Shown here: piece after piece, positions 24,101 to 25,449 of the stretch
Numbering within the stretch: position 1 is the first letter of the stretch
How the letters are laid out: every line of letters begins with the position of its first letter
Assembly: GCF_024181385.1 (NCBI RefSeq)
Contig: NZ_CP051305.1
Coordinates: forward strand, 2,356,001 to 2,420,000
From: Treponema sp. OMZ 798
GTDB taxonomy: Bacteria; Spirochaetota; Spirochaetia; Treponematales; Treponemataceae
DNA length: 64,000 nt
Reading direction: 5' to 3'
Made by a program: the position numbers and the translations under genes
The notes under the pieces: generated by a model
The model's database searches: none
Told to the model about the DNA's origin: nothing
Seen by the model: the letters and a program-made list of their open reading frames with translations, nothing else

Positions 24101-24236
24101 AGGGCCGGCAAGCCAAGCGGATGCCAAGATTGTTGTTCCTGTTGTCAGGACTGTTGTTGTTCCGGTAGCCTACAGTGCAGTTGTTCGCGTTGTTGTTCCA
24201 GCTGCCGCCGCGTTTAACACGGTTAGAGCCTGATGC
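24101..24236 (-). repeat. Candidate DGR template repeat (TR)
   Basis: These 136 bases align without gaps to 24435-24570 at a constant offset of 334. There are 19 differences, and 18 are at adenines of this copy in minus-strand orientation; the one exception is at 24146 (G in coding sense). Read in the frame of the variable copy it encodes 13 Asn codons (AAC or AAT) in clusters such as SWNNNANNC and YRNNNSPDNRNNN, the usual build of a template for adenine-directed mutagenesis. No start codon or long ORF covers it, so it acts as non-coding DNA or RNA. Confidence 0.9.
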
Positions 24237-24345
24237 GACACCTTATAAGGTCCATACCGTTTTTTAGCCAAAAAAATTTAGAACCGCTAAAGCGGCTTAC
24301 ACAGTGCAGGTCAATCTTATTTTCAAAAATTTACTGCAACCACAC

Positions 24346-24429
24346 CACACATTTTGCCTGTTCGGTTTCACCGCTTCGGGCGGCTTACGCTGCGCCCTCA
24401 GCTGCTCAACCTCTCCGGCAAAATGTGTG
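24346..24429. repeat. Inverted repeat downstream of the variable repeat
   Basis: CACACATTTTGCC (24346-24358) is repeated inverted as GGCAAAATGTGTG (24417-24429), with a smaller CCGC/GCGG hairpin in the loop. It starts 4 bases after the stop codon of the variable lipoprotein. DGR variable repeats are known to be followed by hairpin or cruciform elements that help target recognition; a plain terminator is the alternative. Confidence 0.6.
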
Positions 24430-24432
24430 AAC

Positions 24433-25449
24433 TTAGGGCCGGCAAGCCAAGCGGATGCCAAGATCGCTGAACCTGAGGTAAGGACTGTCGCTGTACCGGT
24501 AGCCTACAGTGCAGTTGAACGCGAAGCCGTCCCAGCTGCCGCCGCGTTTAACACGGATAGAGCCTGAAGCTGGGCCAGGATAGTCTTGAGGGAAAGAGTC
24601 CCCGGTATGGATATCGGCCTGCCAATCCCAGCACCACTCCATTACATTTCCTGCGATGTCGTAAAGGCCATAATAATTAGGCTTTTTCTTTTTAACTTCA
24701 TGGGTCTTTAGATCCGAATCTCCACCGTCATAATTTGAATACCAAGCATATTCTATTAACCTATCCTTTTGATTTGTATTAGGCCATATATATTTTTTTC
24801 CTCCCTTAGCAGCCCACTCCCATTCTGCCTCCGTCGGAAGCCTAAAGCCGTTCTTACTCATATCTAGTTCAGCCTTATTCCAATCAGCATTATCGGTTGT
24901 GGGAATTTGATCAAAGGTAAGAGTATCAAAATCAACAGGACTTCCTCCAACTTTTACCGTATAGCAAGGTTCAAGATTAAGCTTTAGGCTGAGCTTATTA
25001 CAAAAGGCTATTGCATGGTACCAGTTGATGTTTTCTACAGGACGCCTTTGTTGTACCTCTCCGGATGCAGGATTAGATTTAAAAACACTGGGATTTTTAT
25101 CCATAACTTTGTTCCACAACTCCTGCGTTACCTCAGTTTCTCCTATGCTGTAGGCTGAAAGCTGTATATCATGTAATCCATTATTATAGATATACTCTGC
25201 TCCCAGCTGATTCCCGGCACCGCTTACAGCCTTTATAGACTTCATCACAAAAGTTACACCTTCCACAGTGTAAGCCTTTCCGGGAGTATTAGGAATTACT
25301 TCGGAAGATTGACTTCCGCCTGATTTTCCCTGACCTGTAGGACAACCGGTTAATAAGCCGATAAAAAGTCCCGCAGCCAACAACAATGCAGTAATAGATA
25401 CTGCCCGATTTAAGACCTTAGTCTTAAGTTTGAAATTAGTGTTCTTCAT
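24433..25449 (-). CDS. DGR-type variable lipoprotein with FGE-sulfatase (C-type-lectin-like) domain, TvpA-like
   Basis: AAGGAG precedes the ATG at 25449. A lipoprotein signal ends in LLTGC, and the Ser/Gly-rich linker suggests surface or periplasmic exposure. Residues 60-338 follow the formylglycine-generating-enzyme fold: IGETEVTQELWNKVM, RPVENINWYHAIAFCNKL, GFRLPTEAEWEWAAKGG, YYGLYDIAGNVMEWCWDW, RVKRGGSWDG, LGIRLACRP. T. denticola TvpA is an established DGR target with this fold. The last 45 codons are the variable repeat. It is the third gene of an operon after a TIR gene and a membrane-protein gene, with a 17-base gap. Confidence 0.9.
   Translation of the reverse strand: MKNTNFKLKTKVLNRAVSITALLLAAGLFIGLLTGCPTGQGKSGGSQSSEVIPNTPGKAYTVEGVTFVMKSIKAVSGAGNQLGAEYIYNNGLHDIQLSAYSIGETEVTQELWNKVMDKNPSVFKSNPASGEVQQRRPVENINWYHAIAFCNKLSLKLNLEPCYTVKVGGSPVDFDTLTFDQIPTTDNADWNKAELDMSKNGFRLPTEAEWEWAAKGGKKYIWPNTNQKDRLIEYAWYSNYDGGDSDLKTHEVKKKKPNYYGLYDIAGNVMEWCWDWQADIHTGDSFPQDYPGPASGSIRVKRGGSWDGFAFNCTVGYRYSDSPYLRFSDLGIRLACRP
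24435..24570 (-). repeat. DGR variable repeat (VR) at the lipoprotein 3' end
   Basis: It occupies the last 45 codons of the lipoprotein gene up to the first base of the stop codon. Twelve of 13 Asn codons of the template copy are changed here (to Ile, Asp, Gly, Phe, Tyr, Ser or Leu), all by substitutions at A positions, while framework residues such as RVKRGGSW, CTVGYR and LGIRLACRP are kept. This fits past mutagenic retrohoming from the copy at 24101-24236. Confidence 0.9.

What the first reader, a model, noticed from the sequence alone, without database searches (positions are those of the whole stretch)
24101..24570. DGR template/variable repeat pair without a reverse transcriptase
The 136 bases at 24101-24236 align gap-free to the lipoprotein 3' end at 24435-24570. 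Of 19 differences, 18 are at adenines of the downstream copy read on the minus strand. That copy encodes 13 Asn codons, 12 of which are replaced in the expressed copy. This adenine bias is diagnostic of DGR mutagenic retrohoming, and T. denticola TvpA with the same fold is a known DGR target. Yet no reverse transcriptase or Avd gene lies here; an HNH-like gene and an Rpn fragment occupy the usual place. Either a distant reverse transcriptase acts in trans, or the locus is frozen.
Basis: partly seen in the sequence, partly recalled or inferred. Interest (0 to 1): 0.95.

Follow-up and report, generated by a model that had tools for sequence, protein, structure and literature searches.

The report
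Gene-diversifier template cut from its enzyme
In a relative of the oral bacterium Treponema denticola, a surface-protein gene carries the almost adenine-only changes left by a system that rewrites genes through RNA, and the template for that rewriting still sits beside it, but no reverse transcriptase is detectable in this 64-kb stretch and the template's far end matches the flank of a different target gene, so the pair was likely severed by recombination and would probably no longer be rewritten.

Summary
In detail: 24101-24236 and 24435-24570 (minus strand) align gap-free with 19 differences, 18 at template adenines; 12 of 13 template Asn codons changed. This is a DGR template (TR) and variable repeat (VR); the lipoprotein is a TvpA homologue (PDB 2y3c, E 1.5e-130). 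No RT or HRDC accessory gene is detectable in the 64 kb. T. denticola ATCC 35405 has the same unit with HRDC and RT after the TR. In the window that flank ends 5 nt past the TR; the following flank matches (167 of 174 nt) the 3' flank of a remote VR in another T. denticola-group genome. Best reading: recombination between TR and a remote VR cut the template off from its priming spacer, HRDC and RT. The pair looks recently written (1 mismatch in 97 non-adenine positions) but is likely frozen. The source genome is not held, so an RT elsewhere is not excluded. RT-less T. denticola strains with left-over VRs, but no TR, are published (PMC4891356); I found no report of a retained TR with such a junction, or of TD-2 hairpins behind VRs (17 of 29 here). 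Interest moderate.

The parts
24101..24236 (-). DGR template repeat (TR), 136 nt, 39 adenines, 13 Asn codons; 3' end TTGAGC as in the ATCC 35405 TR
24435..24570 (-). Variable repeat (VR), the 3' end of the lipoprotein coding region; 18 of 39 template adenines changed, 1 of 97 other positions changed
24433..25449 (-). TvpA homologue: lipoprotein (LTGC lipobox seen by eye), FGE-sulfatase / C-type lectin domain, ATG at 25449, stop TAA at 24433-24435
   Evidence: PF03781 E 2.1e-36; 2y3c E 1.5e-130
24346..24429 (-). Inverted repeat directly 3' of the VR (13-bp outer stem CACACATTTTGCC / GGCAAAATGTGTG), candidate homing hairpin
   Evidence: I1; DNA fold -25.7 kcal/mol, z -5.4; role inferred from PMC3240598 passages
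24237..24434 (-). VR-TR spacer, 198 nt; 1 mismatch in 109 aligned nt against the nearest genome G001 (which has an 89-column gap), 11 in 197 against ATCC 35405
24096..24101 (.). Junction: similarity to the ATCC 35405 DGR ends here (TGAGC), similarity to a remote VR's 3' flank begins
24000..24098 (+). TD-2 RNA family unit (three stem-loops) capping the TR on the opposite strand
   Evidence: RF03162, 84.6 bits; DNA fold z -9.9
23495..23923 (-). HNH-like small ORF (no family match); its first part is 92.7% identical over 342 nt to DNA just behind a VR in genome G003; the ORF end runs into flanking sequence
23367..23558 (+). C-terminal fragment of an Rpn-family recombination-promoting nuclease; the same piece bounds the RT side of the ATCC 35405 DGR
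23392..27080 (.). Islet of about 3.7 kb between an ABC-ATPase gene and a P-type ATPase block; the site is empty (27 nt) in ATCC 35405 and in G004

Best explanation
This is a DGR template/variable-repeat pair whose variable copy differs from the template almost only at adenines (18 of 19 differences), and whose template was likely cut off from its priming spacer, HRDC gene and reverse transcriptase by recombination with a remote variable repeat, so that it would no longer be copied. Shown: the adenine-specific differences; TvpA homology; no RT or HRDC in the window; the same gene-spacer-TR unit followed by spacer, HRDC and RT in T. denticola ATCC 35405; the window's TR followed instead by TD-2 and more sequence that in G004 follows a remote VR. 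Inferred: that the VR was written by mutagenic retrohoming from this TR or one identical to it; that a crossover at the end of the TR/VR homology made the junction; that loss of the spacer stops template use. Direction is undetermined: a resident DGR may have lost its right half, or a resident remote-VR cassette may have received only the left half of a DGR.
For: Adenine bias P 8e-11. Window VR against window TR: 18/39 A and 1/97 non-A; the VR allele at the same chromosomal site in G001 against the window's TR: 17/39 A and 0/97 non-A, although that whole gene is only 73% identical, so two strains' VRs differ at 21 template-A positions and 1 other. ATCC 35405 carries VR, spacer, TR, 134-nt spacer, HRDC, RT in order (coordinates agree with PMC4891356). 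Window similarity to it runs unbroken from 25475 to 24096 and stops 5 nt past the TR. From there the window's TR flank matches the 3' flank of G004's remote VR 696952 at 167 of 174 nt, reaching 78 nt beyond the TD-2 unit. TD-2 lies antisense within 26 nt of 17 of 29 VRs; the HNH-like gene follows a VR in G003. The three other TRs in RT-less genomes are also cut at or inside the TR: G006 runs from TGAGC into a TD-2 piece, G001's second TR stops at about position 126, G004's at 88. Nearest genome G001: no RVT_1, HRDC in broken pieces, RT stub of 28 residues.
Against: The window's own assembly is not held; an RT with an intact TR of the same type could lie elsewhere, and in ATCC 35405 one RT serves VRs far from it (PMC4891356). 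The near-perfect non-A match means the last homing was recent, so RT was present until recently or still is. The VR-TR spacer differs from G001 at only 1 of 109 positions while flanking genes differ at 21% of four-fold sites, so the unit has been exchanged between strains and its age cannot be read from the flanks. The need for the TR-proximal spacer is known from the Bordetella element, not tested in Treponema. No genome was found with the exact parent of the junction. TD-2 occurs 10 to 72 times per genome and could have come in by itself, although the match extends past it.
Confidence: 0.68

Rival explanations
1. Satellite in trans: the source genome carries a DGR RT elsewhere, and the window's VR (perhaps also its TR) is still rewritten by it.
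For: VR has stop, 3' hairpin and near-perfect non-A match (1/97). Remote VRs are served in trans in ATCC 35405 (PMC4891356). TRs are less diverged than their 5' flanks in all 10 pairwise comparisons, which fits some constraint.
Against: TR lacks the RT-proximal spacer. PF00078 finds no RT in 6 of 8 genus genomes, including the nearest (G007 is a 91% complete draft). The other TRs of RT-less genomes also lack that spacer. The lesser TR divergence is also expected from past use.
Confidence: 0.2
2. Plain decay in place: HRDC and RT were deleted from a resident DGR and TD-2 and the HNH-like gene arrived separately as insertions.
For: G001 shows such decay at the same site, with HRDC and RT remnants. 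TD-2 is a dispersed repeat (10 to 72 matches per genome in the 8 searched).
Against: The match to the remote-VR flank of G004 runs 78 nt past TD-2 up to the HNH-like gene's start, and the HNH-like gene also follows a VR in G003; no HRDC or RT remnant is left in the window.
Confidence: 0.25
3. Ordinary gene duplication or gene conversion between two lipoprotein 3' ends, with the differences produced by normal mutation and selection.
For: Repeats in a paralogous family recombine easily, as the shared VR-TR spacer shows.
Against: 18 of 19 differences at A of one copy (P 8e-11) and the same adenine-only pattern in independent pairs: G006 17/39 A and 0/97 non-A; G001 VR against the window's TR 17/39 and 0/97.
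Confidence: 0.02

Closest known systems
Treponema denticola ATCC 35405 DGR (TvpA/TDE2269, TR, HRDC gene, RT; G002:2302500-2306200)
   Same: TvpA-type FGE/C-type-lectin lipoprotein, VR at its 3' end, 198-nt VR-TR spacer with hairpin, TR with the same 3' edge TTGAGC; same end pieces (Rpn fragment; 26813-26960)
   Different: The window lacks the 134-nt spacer, HRDC and RT; TR subtype differs at 6 of 136 positions; other chromosomal site
RT-less T. denticola strains with left-over VR genes (PMC4891356, Table 1: 8 of 17 strains)
   Same: No RT found near, VR gene with adenine-biased differences
   Different: Those strains are reported with 0 TR; the window keeps a full-length TR beside the VR
G001 (unnamed, nearest held genome), 544895-546800
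   Same: Same islet site, same TR subtype, RT lost
   Different: The copy at the TR place is itself adenine-mutated (18/39 A, 2/97 non-A against the window's TR) with a VR-type 3' end; HRDC and RT remnants are still present
TD-2 RNA family, RF03162 (Rfam type: sRNA)
   Same: 24000-24098 is a member, 84.6 bits
   Different: Here it caps a DGR template; its place behind DGR variable repeats was in no paper that I found

Membership tests
Diversity-generating retroelement (complete, active) | TR/VR pair differing mainly at TR adenines | tested here: met
   18 of 19 differences, P 8e-11
Diversity-generating retroelement (complete, active) | DGR-type reverse transcriptase near the TR | tested here: not met
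   No RT in the 64-kb window; the rest of the source genome could not be searched
Diversity-generating retroelement (complete, active) | Accessory gene (Avd, or HRDC in T. denticola) | tested here: not met
   No HRDC in the window by tblastn, best E 7.7; Avd was not searched by profile
Diversity-generating retroelement (complete, active) | Spacer 3' of TR that binds RT and primes cDNA | tested here: not met
   The ATCC 35405 spacer stops 5 nt past the window's TR; need for it known from Bordetella (PMC12875486 passages)
Diversity-generating retroelement (complete, active) | Distinct 3' ends of VR and TR and a hairpin 3' of VR | tested here: met
   TAAGTTC against TTGAGC; VR hairpin, DNA fold z -5.4
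Diversity-generating retroelement (complete, active) | Target protein with C-type-lectin/FGE domain ending in the VR | tested here: met
   PF03781; 2y3c, E 1.5e-130
Diversity-generating retroelement (complete, active) | Ongoing adenine-directed variation | not testable with these tools
   Only a strain comparison was possible: window and G001 VRs differ at 21 template-A sites and 1 other
TD-2 RNA (RF03162) | Covariance-model score above the gathering threshold | tested here: met
   84.6 bits, threshold 48.7

The most novel reading that the evidence does not exclude
RT-less VR-TR units are a spreading, non-autonomous form of DGR in oral treponemes: TR and VRs recombine with one another so that templates move onto the 3' flanks of remote targets, TD-2 hairpins mark DGR targets as a portable address, and the units pass between strains and species (G001's second TR and that of T. 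putidum are identical over 126 nt, their 5' flanks differ at 1 of 130) to be rewritten in trans whenever an RT-bearing cassette is present.
Probability: 0.13. Interest if true: 0.8.

Novelty: new variant of a known kind. Interest (0 to 1): 0.5.

Why it matters
Why about half of T. denticola strains lack a DGR core while keeping its targets was left open (PMC4891356 speaks of multiple gains and losses). The window offers a concrete route: the TR is homologous to every remote VR, so recombination between them can strip a DGR of its enzyme in one step. It predicts that orphan TRs end at or inside the TR/VR homology, which holds for the 4 seen here (window, G001's second TR, G004, G006). It also gives a TR record of the type that wrote G001's VR, and links the unexplained TD-2 RNA family to DGR targets.

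Tried and rejected
RT in the window: rejected. TR on phages, plasmids or viral contigs as a source of RT in trans: exact 42-nt TR stretch, 0 matches in viral contigs; no match in phages or plasmids; those collections may leave out records near the window's genome. Dating RT loss by TR-VR non-A differences against core divergence: given up, because the VR-TR spacer itself was exchanged recently (1/109 against G001). Selection on orphan TRs in RT-less genomes: the identity of the G001 and G006 TRs extends into their 5' flank (1/130), so it shows recent exchange rather than constraint. Promoter/terminator scan of 23400-25700: 14 promoter-like and 7 terminator-like sites against shuffle means of 5.5 and 2.0; consensus matches only, not used. 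Literature on TD-1/TD-2: 0 papers; 3 papers listed, none on this by title and abstract start. Literature on RT-less TR/VR pairs: listings; passages of PMC8144416 and PMC3521204; term look-up in PMC6642488 with 0 occurrences. Only PMC4891356 bore on it, main text parts 1 to 5 of 6. The large DGR survey in Nucleic Acids Res. 2018 is recalled, not seen.

Full report
What is there. The repeat pair is exactly as described: 136 nt, no gaps, 19 differences, 18 at adenines of the 24101-24236 copy read on the minus strand, 12 of 13 Asn codons replaced. The expressed copy is the 3' end of a lipoprotein gene (24433-25449, minus) with an FGE-sulfatase domain (PF03781) that is a homologue of the crystallised T. 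denticola variable protein TvpA (2y3c, E 1.5e-130). It is a DGR template and variable repeat.

The missing part. An HMM of 120 RT relatives and tblastn with the ATCC 35405 RT and HRDC proteins find nothing in the 64 kb beyond chance scores, while the control locus scores E 3.7e-157. The window's assembly is not held. The nearest held genome, G001 (one contig, 99% complete), has no RVT_1 match; in its genus RVT_1 is found in 2 of 8 genomes, G002 and G008. With the RT protein as query, 53 of 195 family genomes match, among the 8 genus-mates G002, G008 (a partial match by a contig end) and a stub in G001.

Comparison with a complete DGR. G002 has the length of, and the same TR and target coordinates as, T. 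denticola ATCC 35405 in PMC4891356. There the order is tvpA/VR, 198-nt spacer, TR, 134-nt spacer, HRDC, RT, then a TD-2 unit and an Rpn fragment. The window matches from 25475 through 24096 (81% over 1397 nt), then jumps to the Rpn fragment (23566-23375); what lies between, the 134-nt spacer, HRDC and RT, is gone. A 40-nt piece at 23560-23598 also resembles the RT's 3' flank (82.5%, E 6e-4).

The junction. Five bases past the TR (TGAGC, shared with the ATCC 35405 TR) the window turns into a TD-2 unit (24000-24098) and then the leader of the HNH-like gene. This flank matches the 3' flank of a remote VR in G004 at 167 of 174 aligned nt with 7 gap columns, and the match goes 78 nt beyond TD-2. 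In G003 DNA 92.7% identical to the first part of the HNH-like gene follows a VR. So the window's TR sits where remote VRs sit in relatives. Because TR and VR are homologous over 136 nt, a crossover at their 3' end explains the junction in one step. Whether a DGR lost its right half or a remote-VR cassette gained a DGR's left half cannot be told.

The site. The islet (about 23392-27080) lies between an ABC-ATPase gene and a P-type ATPase block. In G003 the two flanks lie apart.

The G001 remnant. HRDC survives as two pieces (residues 1-64 and 77-127) and RT as its last 28 residues. The copy at the TR place is itself adenine-mutated: against the window's TR it differs at 18 of 39 A and 2 of 97 other positions, and ends like a VR (TAAGTTCACACA) while the spacer behind it is kept. 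The VR beside it differs from the window's TR at 17 of 39 A and 0 of 97 others. The window thus preserves the template type that wrote G001's VR and that G001 no longer has at this site. The two strains' VRs differ at 21 template-A sites and 1 other site.

Age. TR-VR non-A differences are 1/97 here, 0/97 in G006 and 4/97 in the RT-bearing ATCC 35405, so homing was recent in RT-less lineages. Flanking genes of window and G001 differ at 28/129 and 69/334 four-fold sites but the VR-TR spacers at 1/109: the unit has been exchanged between strains. TRs are less diverged than their 5' flanks in 10 of 10 comparisons, by roughly two-fold in most, as expected of sequences that were in use.

Other orphan TRs. 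Of the 6 genus genomes without an RVT_1 match, 3 (G001, G004, G006) keep a TR elsewhere; each is cut at or within the TR (G006 continues from TGAGC into a TD-2 piece; G001's second at about position 126; G004's at 88) and none keeps the RT-side spacer. G003, G005 and G007 showed none.

TD-2. Among 29 VRs in G001, G002, G003, G004 and G006, 17 have a TD-2 unit within 26 nt behind the VR on the opposite strand, 2 more have one on the same strand within 131 nt, 10 none. Dropped: 1 weak G002 hit for which no locus was fetched, and the VRs of G007 (2) and G008 (3). Chance expectation is under 0.003 VRs per genome; the VRs are paralogues, so these are not 17 independent events. TD-2 itself has 10 to 72 matches per genome in the 8 genomes, so most copies are not at VRs.

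What is known. PMC4891356 (main text parts 1-5 of 6) reports complete DGRs in 9 of 17 T. denticola strains; the other 8 have VR genes but 0 RT and 0 TR; the HRDC gene lies between TR and RT. PMC12875486 (passages) states that the spacer between TR and RT recruits the RT-Avd complex and primes cDNA in the Bordetella DGR. PMC3240598 (passages) shows that a hairpin 3' of the VR is needed for homing there. I found no paper on a retained TR with this junction or on TD-2 at VRs.

Verdict. DGR-derived TR/VR pair, real and recently written; RT not in the window; likely severed by recombination between TR and a remote VR, and likely inert. Steps shown and inferred are separated in the best explanation.

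Noticed in passing
G001:C1:545955-546090 (L072 10956-11091): The place of the TR holds an adenine-mutated copy with a VR-type 3' end, as if the DGR, or conversion by a VR, had overwritten its own template.
   Followed up: partly
29 VR loci in G001, G002, G003, G004, G006: TD-2 RNA units lie within 26 nt behind 17 of 29 variable repeats, on the opposite strand.
   Followed up: partly
G002 1952795-1953073, 2164394-2164587, 2125446-2125638; G001 1455410-1455807: TD-2 units occur in head-to-tail arrays with about 95-160 nt spacing.
   Followed up: no
P0121 (Treponema sp. OMZ 792): A protein 95% identical to the window's lipoprotein over 87% of it ends without the VR and continues as an unrelated sequence.
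   Followed up: partly
25889-26665 and 25467-25892, minus: A 258-aa ORF with a weak TIR-like start of domain (E 0.04 and 0.065, below cut-offs) next to a small ORF that looks membrane-spanning, inside the islet.
   Followed up: partly
59707-59866: TD-1 (+) and TD-2 (-) matches overlap on opposite strands, upstream of a small regulator-like ORF at 59846-60253.
   Followed up: no
   Followed up: no
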